A stretch of DNA of 38,774 bases, from positions 1 through 38,774 of the forward strand of contig JAHIRB010000025.1 in assembly GCA_018818885.1 (NCBI GenBank), given 5' to 3'. Each line of letters begins with the position of its first letter. Positions within the stretch are counted from its first letter, which is position 1. Shown here one piece after another: positions 4,851-34,297 of this stretch. Origin of the DNA: Patescibacteria group bacterium (GTDB lineage Bacteria > Patescibacteriota > Patescibacteriia > Buchananbacterales > SURF-54). The translations under genes were made by a program, and so were the position numbers. The notes under the pieces were generated by a model. It ran no database searches and was not told the DNA's origin. It was given only the letters and a program-made list of their open reading frames with translations.

Positions 4851-4967
4851 ACCCTGTAGTAGCCCCGTAGATGGGGTAAAAATTAATTGTTAGTTTTATT
4901 TAATTGATATTTCATTAATACGACCTCATAGTTATACTTTATTATACGGGATCACTACAAGACACAT
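4848..4967. repeat. Inverted-repeat element copy 1 (degenerate), before rplO
   Basis: The end next to rplO reads CATACCCTGTAGTAG, matching the terminal arm of the other copies, and the CAT is the complement of the rplO start codon. The far end is degraded (GATCACTACAAG). It fills the place where rpmD would be in other bacteria. Confidence 0.55.
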
Positions 4968-5525
4968 TTATTTTTTAATTTCTTCTTTCGACCCTGAGCT
5001 TATCGAAGGGTTTGATTTTTTTGTAGAAGCTTTCTTTTCTGACTTTACTTCCTTATTTTTTGATTCAACTTTCTTTAATGATTCCAATGCTGCAATTGTT
5101 GCTGTTACATTATTTATTTTGTTATTAGTACCTAAAATCTTAGCTACCACATTATTTACACCAGCAAGTTCCATAACTGTTCTAACAGCTCCTCCAGCAA
5201 TAATCCCAGTACCTTTAGGAGCAGGTTTAATTAATATTCTAGCAGCTTTCCATTTAATTTTTACTTCGTGTGGGATTGTTTCGTTAATTATTGGTACATG
5301 TATCCATTTTTTCTTGGCTTGATTAACTGCCTTATTTACAGCTAAAGTAACATCTGCGCCTTTAGCAACTGCCATGGCTACTTTGCCTTTTTTATCTCCA
5401 ATAACAATACATGCTCGAAAACGCATTCTTTTACCACCCGCCATAACACGTGTTACGCGCGCGATATCAATAATACTTTGTTCGAATTCTTTTTCTTCTT
5501 TAAATCTTGGGGTTGATCTTCTCAT
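4968..5525 (-). CDS. rpsE: 30S ribosomal protein S5 (uS5)
   Basis: Small-subunit protein at the mRNA entry region, important for decoding fidelity. The S5 N-domain (VTRVMAGGKRMRFRA, residues about 24-38) and the C-domain GTGIIAGGAVRTVMELAGV are clear. At 185 residues it carries a charged C-terminal tail of about 35 residues. Within that tail the codons for NPSISSGS coincide with a short palindromic repeat (4987-5010), so part of the tail looks repeat-derived. The start is set by the ATG at the end of repeat copy 2. Confidence 0.97.
   Translation of the reverse strand: MRRSTPRFKEEKEFEQSIIDIARVTRVMAGGKRMRFRACIVIGDKKGKVAMAVAKGADVTLAVNKAVNQAKKKWIHVPIINETIPHEVKIKWKAARILIKPAPKGTGIIAGGAVRTVMELAGVNNVVAKILGTNNKINNVTATIAALESLKKVESKNKEVKSEKKASTKKSNPSISSGSKEEIKK
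4987..5010. repeat. Palindromic repeat inside the rpsE coding region
   Basis: On the minus strand this reads CCCTTCGATAAGCTCAGGGT, a short dispersed palindrome also seen at 23031-23054. It is in frame and encodes NPSISSGS in the S5 tail. Confidence 0.65.
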
Positions 5526-9046: not shown

Positions 9047-9328
9047 TTATAATTTTTTAACTTCCTTTGAACCTGTGCTAGCTTGCCCTGTCGTTCTAGA
9101 CCCTAAACGGAAATCGAGTTGGGGGGTCGAAAATTTAGATTGTTTCTGTTCTGCGTTAAGCAACATTAAAATTTGAGCAATAGTTTTTTTAACAACTCTG
9201 ATTTCTCGAATATTTTTAACTTGCTTTTGCGAAACCTTAAAACGTAAGTCTCTCAGTTTTTCTCTGTTTTCAGCTAAAAACTTTTGTAAATCTTTAACTG
9301 ACTTCTTTTTTAATTCTTTATATTCCAT
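9047..9328 (-). CDS. rpmC: 50S ribosomal protein L29 (uL29), extended
   Basis: Located at the peptide exit tunnel. The core MEYKELKKKSVKDLQKFLAE...LRDLRFKVSQKQVKNIREIR is typical L29. I chose the ATG at 9328, one base after the rplP stop; an upstream ATG (9343) would overlap rplP by 14 bases. The protein is 93 residues against the usual 60-70, with a tail of about 30 residues encoded by GC-richer DNA (about 9060-9135) that may derive from a repeat. Confidence 0.93.
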   Translation of the reverse strand: MEYKELKKKSVKDLQKFLAENREKLRDLRFKVSQKQVKNIREIRVVKKTIAQILMLLNAEQKQSKFSTPQLDFRLGSRTTGQASTGSKEVKKL

Positions 9329-9329
9329 A

Positions 9330-9740
9330 TTATTTAATAACAAATTTTGTCTTTACGCTCATTTTATGTCCAGCAAGTCTCATGGCTTCTTTGGCAATTT
9401 CTGGTTCTACTCCGTCTAGTTCGAACATCACTGTCCCTGGCTTTACTATAGCTACATATCTATCTGGTGCACCTTTTCCCGAACCCATAGTGGCTTGAGT
9501 ACCTTTAGCTGTAACTGGTTTATCAGGAAAAATTCTAATCCAAATTTTTCCTCCACGTTTAACGTAACGGGTCATGGCAACACGCGCTGCCTCAATTTGA
9601 CGTGAGCTTACCCATCCATGTGATAGTGATTTTAAACCATACTTACCAAAACTAATACGATTAATACTTGTTGCTACACCTTTGTTTCTTTTTCTACCTT
9701 TATGCCATTTTCTGTGTTTTATTTTTTTAGGAGTCAACAT
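9330..9740 (-). CDS. rplP: 50S ribosomal protein L16 (uL16)
   Basis: Helps position tRNA in the large subunit. [16 protein letters not shown] at the start, the [15 protein letters not shown] block near residue 70 and [17 protein letters not shown] are diagnostic. 136 residues is the normal length. It sits four bases after rpsC. Confidence 0.98.
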
Positions 9741-30833: not shown

Positions 30834-30905
30834 CTAACTCACCCGAGCTTCTGGGTCAGTAAAGAAATAAAAACCGAAATACCAGTTGTTTTGCATAATA
30901 TTCAT
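30834..30905 (-). CDS. Aromatic-rich leader peptide (23 aa)
   Basis: The peptide starts MNIMQNN and continues WYFGFYFFTDPEARVS: one Trp, two Tyr and four Phe within eight codons (residues 8-15). This is the composition of known phe, trp and aro leader peptides. Its stop codon lies within antiterminator strand 2. The promoter -10 box ends 11 bases before the ATG, so the mRNA would have a 5' leader of only about four bases. It was found by reading the leader directly. Confidence 0.85.
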   Translation of the reverse strand: MNIMQNNWYFGFYFFTDPEARVS

Positions 30906-31058: not shown

Positions 31059-32696
31059 CTATTTCGAGTTACCGTTGCCCCGAAGCGAATTAACCAACCA
31101 GCTAATGCAGTTGGCGTAGCCCTGGGCGGTTGCCTGGATAGTATCGACATCAGCATCTCTACCAGAATATATACGATTCTTCTCGTTCACCAGACCGATA
31201 GCTGCATGCAAGTCTGCAATAGCTTCTGCACCCTCGCCTACTTGCACAGGTTGCCATCTCTTAAGTACAATCTCGACTCCTTTCAATTCAGGGAAAATAT
31301 CCTTGGCAGCTTCGAACACAGCCAGCATAACTGCATGGAAAGTACCATTGCCTTTCATTGAGGCGGAAGCTTGTTTCCCTTCAGCTTCAATTATAATCGT
31401 AGCATTAGGTATAGTACCTCTTCCACCAATAGCCTGGCACCGTACTACCTCGATACGAAACGGAGTTTTCTCAACCACATCCTGTGCGAGAGTGATCAAC
31501 TCGTGGTCAGTTACCCTTGCACCGGCTCTGGCGTCTGAAAGCTTGGTCATTTTCTGGTATATTCTGTCGAGTTGTTCGTTCGTAACGTCGAACCCTAATT
31601 GTTCAAGGCGATACCTTAATCCTTTTCTAGAGGAGCTTTGGTTCAATACGACTTCGACACCAGTATGGCCAAACATGTCTGGCTTCCAACTGTAGTAAGG
31701 ACTTGCCTGCTCTTGTTTAGCTGCTCCAGCCTCAACACCCTGATGCATACCAGAGCTCACCACGATATTTTGAATACCTGCAACCACGTGATGCCTTGGA
31801 ACTTGCATCCCAAGTGCAGTAGCAACGAAATTGACTATTTCTACAGTCATTGATGCATCAAGGCAAACTGCATAGTTAGCAAACACATCACGTCGTGTAA
31901 ACAAGCTAAGTAATATAGCCTCGAACTTGGTCATACCACTACGCTCACCTAAACCGAAGAAGGTACCTTCGATTATTGTTGCGCCGTTGCGTATTGCACA
32001 GAGCGCATTATGAGTGGAATGATCTGAGTCGTTGTGACAGTGAACCGATACTTGAGCTTTCCCGATATTGGACACGTTATCGAAAATATAGGCGATTCTA
32101 TCACCAAATTCGTTTCCGATACAAAGCCCTGTAGTGTCGGGGATGTTGACAACAGTTGCACCAGCATCGATGACTCCCTTAATAAGTCGACATAGATAAT
32201 CCACGTCACTAGCACGTGCTGCATCCTCAGGCGAGTATTCAATGTGTTTGAAGCCCAACCGTTTGGCATACTTGATGCATTTAACTGCCAAATCGAAAAG
32301 AAAGTTCTGTTTACCTTCCTTAGTATTGCCATATTTTACTGAATTGAACTGTGCCATTACCAACTGGTCACTCACAGGTATAACAATGTGACAAATGTCA
32401 CAACCAGCTTTTTTAACCGCATCGATGTCGATTTCTGCACCGCGCGCCAATCCGGACAACAAAGGTTTATCGCTGACACAGTTTGACTGATCAACAAACT
32501 TACGTATGCGAATACAATTTTTCAACTGCTCGTCGGAACTACCAGGAAAACCAATTTCGATTCTTCTTGTACCGACTCGCATAAGACGGTCCACTAATCC
32601 TTCCTGGTCTTCCACGGACATTCCTCCACCTTCAACTTGCCCGGATTCTCTGAGTGTTACGTCGTTGAATTCAATCATTATCATGTTTTCTTGCAT
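31059..32696 (-). CDS. leuA: 2-isopropylmalate synthase family protein (LeuA-like)
   Basis: Condenses acetyl-CoA with a 2-oxo acid, the first step of leucine synthesis if it is a true LeuA. 545 residues. The HMGL-like TIM barrel has FNDVTLRESGQ (D12 metal ligand, R16 catalytic), HCHND with H219 and H221, and GLGERSGMTKFEA; the linker SSGMHQ follows. The C-terminal part (from about residue 410, IEVVRCQAIGGRG) is the LeuA_dimer regulatory domain, so homocitrate or citramalate synthase activity is also possible. AGGAGA precedes the ATG. A Leu-rich leader peptide attenuator upstream supports a leucine role. No leuB, leuC or leuD is in the window. Its GC content is visibly higher than that of its neighbours. 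Confidence 0.9.
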   Translation of the reverse strand: MQENMIMIEFNDVTLRESGQVEGGGMSVEDQEGLVDRLMRVGTRRIEIGFPGSSDEQLKNCIRIRKFVDQSNCVSDKPLLSGLARGAEIDIDAVKKAGCDICHIVIPVSDQLVMAQFNSVKYGNTKEGKQNFLFDLAVKCIKYAKRLGFKHIEYSPEDAARASDVDYLCRLIKGVIDAGATVVNIPDTTGLCIGNEFGDRIAYIFDNVSNIGKAQVSVHCHNDSDHSTHNALCAIRNGATIIEGTFFGLGERSGMTKFEAILLSLFTRRDVFANYAVCLDASMTVEIVNFVATALGMQVPRHHVVAGIQNIVVSSGMHQGVEAGAAKQEQASPYYSWKPDMFGHTGVEVVLNQSSSRKGLRYRLEQLGFDVTNEQLDRIYQKMTKLSDARAGARVTDHELITLAQDVVEKTPFRIEVVRCQAIGGRGTIPNATIIIEAEGKQASASMKGNGTFHAVMLAVFEAAKDIFPELKGVEIVLKRWQPVQVGEGAEAIADLHAAIGLVNEKNRIYSGRDADVDTIQATAQGYANCISWLVNSLRGNGNSK

Positions 32697-32788
32697 TTCT
32701 ATCTTCTCCTATTCGTTATGTTGGCTTATGAAAGTTTTAACTTTCTTGCTTAGTTCCCCTCCCATGAAAAGAACATAAAATAAAAACT

Positions 32789-32811
32789 GCCCTTCACTAC
32801 TGGCGAAAGGC
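32789..32811 (-). terminator. Terminator hairpin of attenuator iii
   Basis: GCCTTTC and GAAGGGC, 7 bp, nine-base loop, followed by AGTTTTTATTTT on the minus strand. Confidence 0.85.
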
Positions 32812-32840
32812 TAGCTTCTGTTTAATATCTTTATTTAATC

Positions 32841-32930
32841 TTAGACATAAGTAAACCTTCCACCAAAAGGTAGCAACAACAATAATAATGCTTTTAAGTT
32901 CTGATTTAGTTTTAGGCTGAAAGGTTTCAT
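32841..32930 (-). CDS. leuL: Leucine-rich leader peptide (29 aa) of leuA
   Basis: It begins MKPFSLKLNQNLKA, continues with six leucine codons in a row (residues 15-20: TTA TTA TTG TTG TTG CTA) and ends PFGGRFTYV. A run of leucines just before the switching strands is exactly the arrangement of LeuL leaders in enterobacteria. The same PxGG follows the Ile run in leader i, because the RNA strand 2 is conserved there. A TATATT five bases before the ATG may be the -10 box, but no matching -35 is seen; read-through from 33576 is possible. Confidence 0.88.
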   Translation of the reverse strand: MKPFSLKLNQNLKALLLLLLPFGGRFTYV

Positions 32931-33009
32931 TATTTAATATAGTTATAAATTTAGGGTGAGGAGAAAAGAAGCATTGTGCCGCTTTTCCCCTCGAATTCCT
33001 AAGGAACAT

Positions 33010-33150
33010 TGGTGGGTGATTGGGAATCGAACCCGACATCTTTCGGTTGTAACGCATCAGCGAGCTACACATCCTAATCCCCCATGGGGATAAATTAGGT
33101 TGTGTTTCCTGGTTAGAAAATGCGCCGATTGGCCACCTTGGCTATCACCC
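33010..33150 (-). ncRNA. tRNA-like RNA with a large internal insertion
   Basis: The 5' end GGGTGAT (33150-33144) is exactly complementary to ATCACCC (33020-33014), which is followed by ACCA. TAGCCAAGGTGG resembles a tRNA D-arm (GCC/GGC stem) and GGGTTCGATTCCC a T-arm, so the bacterial equivalents of both conserved tRNA boxes are present. GCATT and GATGC can form the anticodon stem. Between them lie about 60 bases with a 14-bp hairpin (CACA-CCTA-ATCCCC against GGGGAT-TAGG-TGTG). The acceptor-plus-T stack is one pair short and the T-stem has one mismatch. It may be an intron-containing or decayed tRNA, or a tRNA mimic. No anticodon can be assigned. Confidence 0.4.
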
Positions 33151-33154
33151 TATG

Positions 33155-33345
33155 CCACGTTCAACTAACCTGTTGCGACAAGTAACCGTTCGCTTACCAG
33201 TAATTACTGGCCACTACTGGCAACAAACTGTTGAACCGACAAACGTGGATCATCAAACGTATCGATGAACATAATGCGAAAATGTTCGCGAAACTAATAG
33301 CTACTGTCAGATCAGAGCGCTCTGTAGCTATTTTCATGTGATCCA
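33155..33345 (-). ncRNA. Structured RNA domains upstream of the tRNA-like RNA
   Basis: Two adjoining domains are visible on the minus strand. The first is closed by TGGATCA/TGATCCA (33345-33339 with 33252-33246) and holds a perfect 9-bp stem, AATAGCTAC/GTAGCTATT (33332-33296). The second is closed by CCACG/CGTGG (33248-33244 with 33159-33155), continued by TTCAAC/GTTGAA and GTTGC/GCAAC, with a perfect CCAGTAATTACTGG hairpin at the tip. No convincing ORF lies here. A TATAAT (33366-33371) could start transcription, or it is reached by read-through of attenuator ii. Confidence 0.4.
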
Positions 33346-33389
33346 AATATTTTAATTAATTGTAAATTATACATTTTCTTTTAAAAAAA

Positions 33390-33409
33390 CCAGCCTTTTT
33401 ATAAGCTAG
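33390..33409 (-). terminator. Terminator hairpin of attenuator ii
   Basis: CTAGCTT/AGGCTGG stem (7 pairs including G-T pairs, extendable through the T-run), followed by TTTTTTT. Confidence 0.75.
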
Positions 33410-33466
33410 CTTTGGAACTTGTCTAATTTGTTGTTTGTTTTATCTTAATTTAGTCCAAAACTAGCC

Positions 33467-33541
33467 TTATATCAATACCACTAGTATCAATACGACTAGG
33501 CTGATTGTGATGACTAAATTGTTAGATAAAACTTTATTCAT
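33467..33541 (-). CDS. Val/Leu/Ile-rich leader peptide (24 aa)
   Basis: It starts MNKVLSNNLVITIS and ends LVVLILVVLI before the stop: ten branched-chain codons in a row at residues 15-24. The stop codon adjoins antiterminator strand 2. The composition matches leaders of ilv operons, which respond to all three branched-chain amino acids. The -10 box ends about 11 bases before the ATG, again giving a very short 5' leader. Confidence 0.83.
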   Translation of the reverse strand: MNKVLSNNLVITISLVVLILVVLI

Positions 33542-33552
33542 ATGATATTTAT

Positions 33553-33581
33553 AATTTACAGCATTACGAAAAAAAAGTCAA
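33553..33581 (-). promoter_or_regulatory. Promoter of attenuator ii
   Basis: TTGACT (complement of 33576-33581), 17-base spacer, TAAATT (complement of 33553-33558). Confidence 0.7.
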
Positions 33582-33657
33582 TGCTTTATTATTACCTAAA
33601 TTTAGTGAAATTAAAATTTTTCCACATACACAGCTATCATTTTTTGCAAAGAGAAAA

Positions 33658-33679
33658 GGCGGTTCGCAAGCGAATCGCC
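33658..33679 (-). terminator. Terminator of the 88-aa gene
   Basis: GGCGATTCGC and GCGAACCGCC (one mismatch, two-base loop), followed by TTTTCTCTTT on the minus strand. Confidence 0.82.
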
Positions 33680-33706
33680 CATTTTGATTTTGCCTTGGCT
33701 ACTGGA

Positions 33707-33973
33707 TTAATCCAGATTTGCCGAATCTACGATGATAGTCACCTCTCTTTTCTTGAAAAAACCCGAACGTATTTTCTCCGGTGGATCATACTTTCCATTA
33801 CCCCTAATTCTGGCAACTACGACACGTTTATCTGACCCTACGGCAAGTTGTACCTTTACAAGTTGGACTTTTGCTCCACTTTCACTACAAATGTCATGTC
33901 CATTTAATCTTTCCCAGTGCCCCCCTCCATTATGCACAAAAACACTGTAGCCACAACTATTATAACTTGACAT
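33707..33973 (-). CDS. 88-aa protein of unknown function behind an isoleucine attenuator
   Basis: I start at the ATG at 33973 (MSSYNSCGYSVFVHNGGGHW) because GGAGGGAAA lies five bases before it. The protein is polar and beta-rich (KVQLVKVQLAVGSDKRVVVARI) with a final EVTIIVDSANLD. There is no signal peptide, membrane segment or recognised family. It is monocistronic: promoter 34165-34193, isoleucine leader peptide, attenuator, gene, terminator. The ending resembles the beta-type endings of the 97-aa and 59-aa proteins in the aromatic operon, which may point to a shared fold. Confidence 0.7.
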   Translation of the reverse strand: MSSYNSCGYSVFVHNGGGHWERLNGHDICSESGAKVQLVKVQLAVGSDKRVVVARIRGNGKYDPPEKIRSGFFKKREVTIIVDSANLD

Positions 33974-34031
33974 CGTTTCCCTCCATTTTGGATCTTTAAA
34001 TGATTTCTTGCCATTTTCGACAATCAAAAAT

Positions 34032-34049
34032 GCCTTCCCAGTGGAAGGC
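34032..34049 (-). terminator. Terminator hairpin of attenuator i
   Basis: GCCTTCC and GGAAGGC, a perfect 7-bp stem with a four-base loop, followed by ATTTTTG on the minus strand. Confidence 0.88.
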
Positions 34050-34076
34050 TTCTTAGTATTTATCTTGTTATTTTAG

Positions 34077-34154
34077 CTAAACACGAAGTAAACTTCCACC
34101 CAAAGGCTGGCTAATAATAATTTCGATAATTATTGTGGAAGTTATTTTTATCAT
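34077..34154 (-). CDS. Isoleucine-rich leader peptide (25 aa)
   Basis: It starts MIKITST, then IIIEIII (residues 8-14, six isoleucine codons out of seven), then SQPLGGSLLRV. The Ile codons end 13 bases before the switching strand. The promoter -10 box ends 10 bases before the ATG, giving a 5' leader of only a few bases, so translation must start nearly leaderless. Confidence 0.86.
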   Translation of the reverse strand: MIKITSTIIIEIIISQPLGGSLLRV

Positions 34155-34164
34155 AGTTTTAAGT

Positions 34165-34193
34165 ATAATATCGTATGTTGAAAATCGTGTCAA
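34165..34193 (-). promoter_or_regulatory. Promoter of attenuator i
   Basis: TTGACA (complement of 34188-34193), 17-base spacer, TATTAT (complement of 34165-34170): near consensus. Confidence 0.85.
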
Positions 34194-34297
34194 GTGCGAG
34201 GTATGTGATTATAGATATTAAGACAATTATAATTTTCTAAATAATTACTTACTCTAATCAGCTCTAATCTCTATAATAACTACAATTACTCAAACTA

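What the first reader, a model, noticed from the sequence alone, without database searches (positions are those of the whole stretch)
33010..33541. Branched-chain attenuator that leads into structured RNA rather than a protein gene
Leader ii ends in ten branched-chain codons and has an 11-bp antiterminator and a terminator with seven T. After the terminator there is no convincing ORF for 450 bases, only folded RNA domains and the tRNA-like structure, then the leucine attenuator and leuA. Either tandem attenuators control leuA, or an attenuator controls a non-coding RNA.
Basis: partly seen in the sequence, partly recalled or inferred. Interest (0 to 1): 0.75.

Follow-up and report, generated by a model that had tools for sequence, protein, structure and literature searches.

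The report
Amino-acid attenuator feeding a tRNA-like RNA
In a tiny-genome bacterium of the Patescibacteria, a switch that senses shortage of branched-chain amino acids opens onto a non-coding RNA ending in a valine-type tRNA look-alike, and only then onto leuA; the same arrangement recurs with proline in relatives, so it may be a new use of an old regulatory device.

Summary
Leader ii (33541-33467, minus strand) ends in ten consecutive Leu/Val/Ile codons and has a 13-15 bp antiterminator that excludes an 11-pair terminator with seven T. Simulated stalling at codons 15-22 gives the antiterminator; a ribosome at the stop codon gives the terminator. No conserved reading frame was found in the 453 nt before leader iii. 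That interval holds a significantly folded domain and a real tRNA-like structure (33150-33010): a perfect 7-bp Val-type acceptor stem, a T arm and CCA, with a ~72-nt hairpin interrupting the anticodon arm. It is not chance (0 of 1000 shuffles).

Leader iii lacks the -35 box present in almost all other leaders examined, and no promoter or terminator separates it from leader ii. Attenuators ii and iii therefore most likely act in series on leuA, with the RNA between them. Relatives show this attenuator family is widespread. Two other genera have a proline attenuator followed by non-decoding tRNA-Pro-like RNAs and no protein gene, and the window's own genome has one at the end of a proline-attenuated proB-proCA operon.

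What the tRNA-like RNAs do is unknown. A decayed tRNA copy remains the main rival, because the window RNA itself has no homologue.

The parts
33553..33581 (-). promoter of leader ii (TTGACT, TAAATT/TGTAAA), 12-13 nt before the leader ATG
   Evidence: the ATGCTGTAAATT -10 region is shared with the Ile leader of G010
33467..33541 (-). leader peptide ii MNKVLSNNLVITISLVVLILVVLI
33470..33499 (-). ten branched-chain control codons (tandem repeat LVVLI LVVLI)
33455..33470 (-). antiterminator 5' arm (region 2)
33401..33415 (-). antiterminator 3' arm (region 3)
33383..33413 (-). intrinsic terminator ii, 11 pairs, T7
33247..33345 (-). RNA domain A (GGATCA...TGATCC); not more stable than shuffles
   Evidence: z -1.2
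33152..33247 (-). RNA domain B, stable branched hairpin
   Evidence: z -3.9
33010..33150 (-). tRNA-like domain: acceptor GGGTGAT/ATCACCC, D-like hairpin, T arm GGGTTCGATTCCC, ACCA; Val-type acceptor
33053..33124 (-). hairpin CGCAT...ATGCG interrupting the anticodon arm, just before TTACAA (Val UAC-like loop) and CCGA
32958..32992 (-). 11-bp hairpin without a T run, where the -35 of leader iii would lie
32841..32930 (-). leader peptide iii (Leu) MKPFSLKLNQNLKALLLLLLPFGGRFTYV, no recognisable -35
32779..32819 (-). terminator iii
31059..32696 (-). divergent 2-isopropylmalate synthase-like gene (leuA)
34077..34154 (-). neighbouring leader i (Ile) MIKITSTIIIEIIISQPLGGSLLRV, sub-threshold match to Rfam Phe_leader
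33707..33973 (-). small ORF of unknown family behind attenuator i, closed by a terminator at 33679-33658
30834..30905 (-). neighbouring leader iv (Trp/Tyr/Phe) MNIMQNNWYFGFYFFTDPEARVS before small unknown ORFs

Best explanation
Leader ii is a classical ribosome-stalling transcription attenuator that opens when charged Val, Leu or Ile tRNA is scarce. Read-through first makes a non-coding RNA, then the Leu attenuator iii, then leuA, from one promoter, so two attenuators act in series on leuA. The non-coding part ends in a non-decoding tRNA mimic: the acceptor and T-arm half of a Val-type tRNA, with the anticodon arm interrupted by a hairpin. It is probably cut out of the read-through transcript by tRNA-processing enzymes (inferred), so it appears only during branched-chain amino acid shortage. 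Shown: attenuator anatomy and switch logic in silico, absence of conserved ORFs, the tRNA-like ends, missing promoter and terminator between ii and iii, parallels with proline in relatives. Inferred: transcription from ii into leuA, processing, Val identity, and any function of the mimic (for example binding the cognate synthetase or another tRNA-binding factor).
For: Switch logic: stalling at codons 15-22 gives the antiterminator, ribosome at stop gives the terminator, no ribosome gives protector plus terminator. The same attenuator family with near-leaderless promoters precedes cimA, leuA and small ORFs in other Patescibacteria, cysK here and proB here; a strict scan of 388 kb of other G010/G004 sequence gives none. 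tRNA-like: only hit in the window, 0/1000 shuffles. In a 392-kb sample of the own genome only two non-canonical tRNA-like ends exist, and both lie in attenuator-controlled units (this one, and the tail of Pro-attenuated proB-proCA). G010 and G004: Pro leader, terminator, then tRNA-Pro-like RNAs only; these are the lowest-scoring tRNAs of their genomes (29.8 and 30.8 bits, next at least 52) although normal Pro tRNAs exist. The acceptor GGGTGAT/ATCACCC-ACCA occurs in four ordinary tRNAs in 271 class genomes, all Val. Leader iii lacks a -35 and no promoter or terminator lies between.
Against: The window RNA has no homologue in 35 related genomes beyond a 32-nt tRNA end, so there is no covariation support. 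Its T stem is one position short and its D and anticodon arms are ambiguous: ARAGORN gives many identities depending on where the insert is cut. In G010 and G004 a Val attenuator at this place leads to two small ORFs, not to RNA. The own genome carries many rearranged tRNA fragments, so a dead tRNA copy is plausible. No transcript data.
Confidence: 0.5

Rival explanations
1. Serial attenuators on leuA with a dead tRNA in between: the attenuators are real and act in series, but the tRNA-like sequence is a disrupted tRNA-Val copy with no function.
For: Tandem tRNA 5' halves joined to a palindromic motif on contig C5, tRNAs with D-loop and anticodon inserts on C27, a nested tRNA in G005; short T stem and no homologue of the window RNA.
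Against: All 7 acceptor pairs and the CCA end are intact; both non-canonical tRNA ends in the 392-kb sample lie in attenuator-controlled units; in G010 and G004 attenuators of two genera lead to nothing but tRNA-like RNA.
Confidence: 0.27
2. The attenuator controls only the non-coding RNA; leader iii and leuA have their own promoter.
For: A TATATT box lies 5 nt before leader iii, and other Leu leaders have their own promoter.
Against: Best -35 match is 3/6, a score reached by about a third of all ATGs on this strand; no intrinsic terminator closes the RNA before leader iii.
Confidence: 0.12
3. A functional tRNA-Val with a bulge-type intron in the anticodon loop, transcribed under starvation.
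For: TTACAA and CCGA could form a Val(UAC) loop once the hairpin is removed.
Against: Normal tRNA-Val UAC and GAC genes exist; no group I intron match; bacteria have no known splicing endonuclease for such inserts (general knowledge); T stem short by one.
Confidence: 0.04
4. The attenuator controls a small unrecognised protein in 33340-33194 (47 aa MKIATERSDL...).
For: Other attenuators of the family control small unknown ORFs; a Val attenuator does so in G010 and G004.
Against: No ribosome-binding site, no Pfam match, no homologue in 919 kb of related loci; the region folds as RNA in part.
Confidence: 0.05

Closest known systems
Ribosome-mediated transcription attenuators of amino-acid operons (trp, his, leu, ilv; Rfam Phe_leader RF01859)
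   Same: Leader peptide rich in the sensed amino acids, mutually exclusive antiterminator and terminator, U-run, promoter just upstream.
   Different: Found in Patescibacteria, nearly leaderless; what follows attenuator ii is a tRNA-like RNA and then a second attenuator. Only leader i reaches a sub-threshold Rfam score (30 bits against a cut-off of 55). Candidate attenuators in Actinobacteria (PMC1262725) stand before biosynthetic or tRNA synthetase genes.
Riboswitch-controlled non-coding RNAs (B12 riboswitch and EutX/Rli55, see PMC5821096; details from general knowledge)
   Same: A premature-termination switch decides how much of a non-coding RNA is made.
   Different: Here the sensor is a translating ribosome and the RNA is tRNA-like.
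Trans-acting attenuator products (rnTrpL/peTrpL, PMC7298713)
   Same: An amino-acid attenuator yields a product beyond the operon mRNA.
   Different: There it is the terminated leader RNA or peptide itself; here it is RNA beyond the terminator.
Non-canonical tRNAs (review PMC7609411)
   Same: Functional tRNAs with altered arms exist.
   Different: A term search of that review found no mention of leaders or candidate phyla; the elements here lack a usable anticodon loop and sit under attenuators.
Bacterial Y RNA (YrlA) with a tRNA-like module
   Same: tRNA mimic attached to another structured domain (from general knowledge).
   Different: No TROVE/Ro60 gene in the genome, no Rfam match.

Membership tests
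Ribosome-mediated transcription attenuator | short translated leader rich in regulatory codons | tested here: met
   10 of the last 10 codons are L/V/I
Ribosome-mediated transcription attenuator | mutually exclusive antiterminator and intrinsic terminator with U-run | tested here: met
Ribosome-mediated transcription attenuator | ribosome position at control codons selects the antiterminator | tested here: met
   folding with masked leader (heuristic 13-nt footprint): codons 15-22 antiterminator, stop codon terminator
Ribosome-mediated transcription attenuator | response to charged-tRNA level in vivo | not testable with these tools
   needs reporter or RNA-seq
T-box riboswitch | match to the T-box covariance model, binding uncharged tRNA instead of translating a leader | tested here: not met
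   no Rfam match at gathering threshold; no T-box among matches at E <= 10 in 32650-34250
canonical tRNA | 7-bp acceptor stem and NCCA end | tested here: met
canonical tRNA | 5-bp T stem | tested here: not met
   3 bp plus a C.A mismatch, 4 positions
canonical tRNA | 5-bp anticodon stem with 7-nt loop; recognised by ARAGORN or the Rfam tRNA model | tested here: not met
   ~72-nt hairpin in the arm; no ARAGORN or Rfam hit at standard thresholds
tmRNA | tRNA-like ends with tag-peptide frame; match to the tmRNA model | tested here: not met
   genome's tmRNA is at C13; no Rfam match here
YrlA / Y RNA | partner Ro60 (TROVE) protein in the genome | tested here: not met
group I intron in a tRNA | match to intron covariance models | tested here: not met

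The most novel reading that the evidence does not exclude
Some Patescibacteria use amino-acid-specific attenuators to make, on starvation, non-decoding mimics of the cognate tRNA (Val here, Pro in G004, G010 and at the end of proB-proCA here) that act as regulatory RNAs, for example on the matching synthetase or on the attenuators themselves.
Probability: 0.3. Interest if true: 0.87.

Novelty: new variant of a known kind. Interest (0 to 1): 0.62.

Why it matters
A literature search held no report of ribosome-mediated attenuation in Patescibacteria, yet it appears here as a family sensing Ile, Val, Leu, Phe/Tyr/Trp, Pro, Cys and Thr, in a genome where no ilvD was found. Attenuators that lead to cognate tRNA-like RNAs would link amino-acid sensing directly to tRNA mimicry and give a testable handle on regulation in a very large, mostly uncultured group.

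Tried and rejected
Homology of the window RNA to the structured region before the odd Val tRNA on C27: looked similar by eye, but the local alignment score was 21 against 19.1 +/- 2.9 for shuffles; rejected. Group I intron, T-box, tmRNA, Y RNA: no model match, or partner missing. Assigning identity by cutting out the insert and running ARAGORN: depends on the cut, so not used as evidence. DNA search for further copies of the Pro attenuator plus tRNA-like in 271 class genomes: only G010 and G004 share the attenuator; a short match in G005 is an ordinary terminator. Small unknown ORFs behind attenuators: no Pfam match except a non-significant LeuA_dimer hint, E 0.3, in G005.

Full report
WHAT THE WINDOW IS. 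The window is the whole 38,774-bp contig C1 of a 1.35-Mb, 98.6% complete genome in 51 contigs. Named records holding relatives of its leuA include Candidatus Paceibacterota and Candidatus Falkowbacteria, so this is a Patescibacterium. On the minus strand the order is: response regulator, ndk, leader i, a small ORF, leader ii, the RNA in question, leader iii, leuA, leader iv, small ORFs.

THE ATTENUATOR IS REAL. Leader ii ends in ten branched-chain codons (33499-33470), a tandem copy of LVVLI. The antiterminator pairs 33470-33455 with 33415-33401 (-18.3 kcal/mol); the terminator uses the same 3' arm (33413-33403) with 33396-33383 and is followed by seven T. I folded the leader with the part covered by a ribosome removed (assumed to reach 13 nt beyond the A site, a rough figure). 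With the A site at codons 15-22 the antiterminator forms; at the stop codon the terminator forms. With no ribosome, an upstream protector hairpin and the terminator form (z -5.35 against shuffles). This is the standard trp/leu/ilv logic.

IT BELONGS TO A FAMILY. The same kind of unit, nearly always a TTGACA-type promoter 5-15 nt before the leader ATG, precedes leuA in other families of the class and in Falkowbacteria. It precedes citramalate synthase (Ile leader) in G010, G004 and G235. In this genome it precedes a ParB-like gene plus cysK (Cys leader), a small ORF (Thr leader) and proB-proCA (Pro leader). The gene order ndk - Ile leader - Val leader - Leu leader - leuA is kept in G010. Control: the strict scanner gave no candidate in 388 kb of other G010/G004 sequence. 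No paper in the searched library reports attenuation in this group.

WHAT FOLLOWS LEADER II. From the terminator (33383) to leader iii (32930) there are 453 nt. No frame has a Pfam match, and none matches 919 kb of loci from other genomes beyond a 20-aa hit at E 0.011. Domain B (33247-33152), the tRNA-like domain and the hairpin at 32992-32958 fold better than shuffles (z -3.9, -2.3, -4.4); domain A does not (z -1.2).

THE tRNA-LIKE DOMAIN. 33150-33010 has a perfect acceptor stem GGGTGAT/ATCACCC, a T arm GGGTTCGATTCCC and ACCA. A search for such matched ends finds only this one in the window, none in 1000 shuffles, and in ~390 kb of own-genome sample every other hit is an ordinary tRNA. With slightly looser rules the 392-kb sample yields exactly two non-canonical ends: this one, and one directly behind the proline-attenuated proB-proCA operon; 2.35 Mb of block-shuffled sequence gives none. 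The acceptor sequence occurs in four ordinary tRNAs in 271 class genomes, all Val. The domain is not a normal tRNA: its T stem has four positions instead of five, a ~72-nt hairpin (33124-33053) interrupts the anticodon arm, and neither ARAGORN nor Rfam calls it. A Val(UAC)-like TTACAA lies after the insert, but the arms can be drawn in more than one way. Ordinary tRNA-Val UAC and GAC genes exist, so the domain is not needed for decoding.

THE PARALLEL WITH PROLINE. In G010 a proline leader (MSKQRNSILPLPPTSV) and terminator are followed at once by a tRNA-Pro-like RNA with C1-G72 and a 9-nt anticodon loop. In G004 (72% identical over the attenuator) the leader MNKHLNSILPTPPCC is followed by one tRNA-Pro-like RNA with a ~12-bp anticodon hairpin and a second with a Pro(UGG) anticodon and a long D-loop insert; then the Phe attenuator begins. 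The G010 element and the first G004 element are the lowest-scoring tRNAs of their genomes, 29.8 and 30.8 bits against at least 52 for all others, and ordinary Pro tRNAs are present. No protein gene was seen between these attenuators and the next, so the RNA is the evident product.

SERIAL ATTENUATORS. Leader iii has a -10 box but only a 3/6 -35, a total score reached by about a third of all ATGs on the strand, whereas almost all other leaders score 9-12 of 12. No minus-strand promoter-like site lies between 33447 and 32930, and no terminator closes the RNA. The simplest reading is one transcription unit: promoter ii, attenuator ii, RNA, attenuator iii, leuA. The tRNA-like end could serve as a processing site. 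This part is inference.

LIMITS. The window RNA has no homologue in the relatives held, so its structure cannot be tested by covariation. In G010 and G004 the Val attenuator leads to small ORFs, so the RNA is a lineage-specific occupant of the place. tRNA fragments are scattered and rearranged in this genome, which keeps the dead-tRNA rival alive. The leuA protein is divergent, and no ilvD was found, so what leucine-type control achieves here is itself open.

VERDICT. Observation confirmed. Attenuation is a known kind; an attenuator whose first product is a cognate-type tRNA-like RNA, ahead of a second attenuator, is a new variant. The function of the RNA is the open question.

Noticed in passing
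window 30905-30755 (-): Fourth attenuator in the array: Trp/Tyr/Phe leader MNIMQNNWYFGFYFFTDPEARVS with terminator, leading to several small ORFs of no known family; relatives have Phe leaders at the same place.
   Followed up: partly
window 29300-29060 (-): Possible conserved non-coding RNA (TTGAGCTTCACT...GGGACAACnTTTG...GTGGAGTTCTGTAG) also seen in G005 (L079 6180-5930 -); not an Rfam match; perhaps 6S-like.
   Followed up: no
L103 (own contig C5) 420-180 and 870-720, minus strand: Tandem copies of tRNA-Val and tRNA-Ile 5' halves joined to a palindromic motif CCCGCCCGAACGACTGAAC at the D-loop position, next to the intact tRNAs: a tRNA-targeting repeat or insertion process.
   Followed up: no
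L053 (own contig C27) 190-860: Cluster of odd tRNAs: Val(UAC) with a D-loop insert, Val(AAC) with an anticodon-loop insert, Asn with a long variable region, separated by strong hairpins and preceded by a structured element with its own promoter.
   Followed up: partly
L153 (own contig C39) 6970-3450, minus strand: Proline attenuator, proB, proC-proA fusion, tRNA-Pro-like RNA, promoter, normal tRNA-Pro(UGG).
   Followed up: yes
L100 (own contig C27) 4700-2853, minus strand: Cysteine attenuator MNSNKCQQNTCNCCCNCCCLPHFSIC before a ParB-like gene and cysK.
   Followed up: yes
L052 (G235) 4868-5000 and 9262-9465: Inverted-repeat element ATGAATCCCGTTAGAAGC...GCTTCTAACGGGATGAA lying exactly at the start codon of two attenuator leaders (Ile and Asn-rich); looks like a mobile or promoter-separating element.
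   Followed up: no
L079 (G005) 5830-5640, minus strand: A complete tRNA-Pro(GGG) nested between the halves of another tRNA-like sequence.
   Followed up: no
own contig C10 (L102/L017): tRNA-Thr(GGT) called by ARAGORN with a ~205-nt intron-like insert, possibly a group I intron.
   Followed up: no
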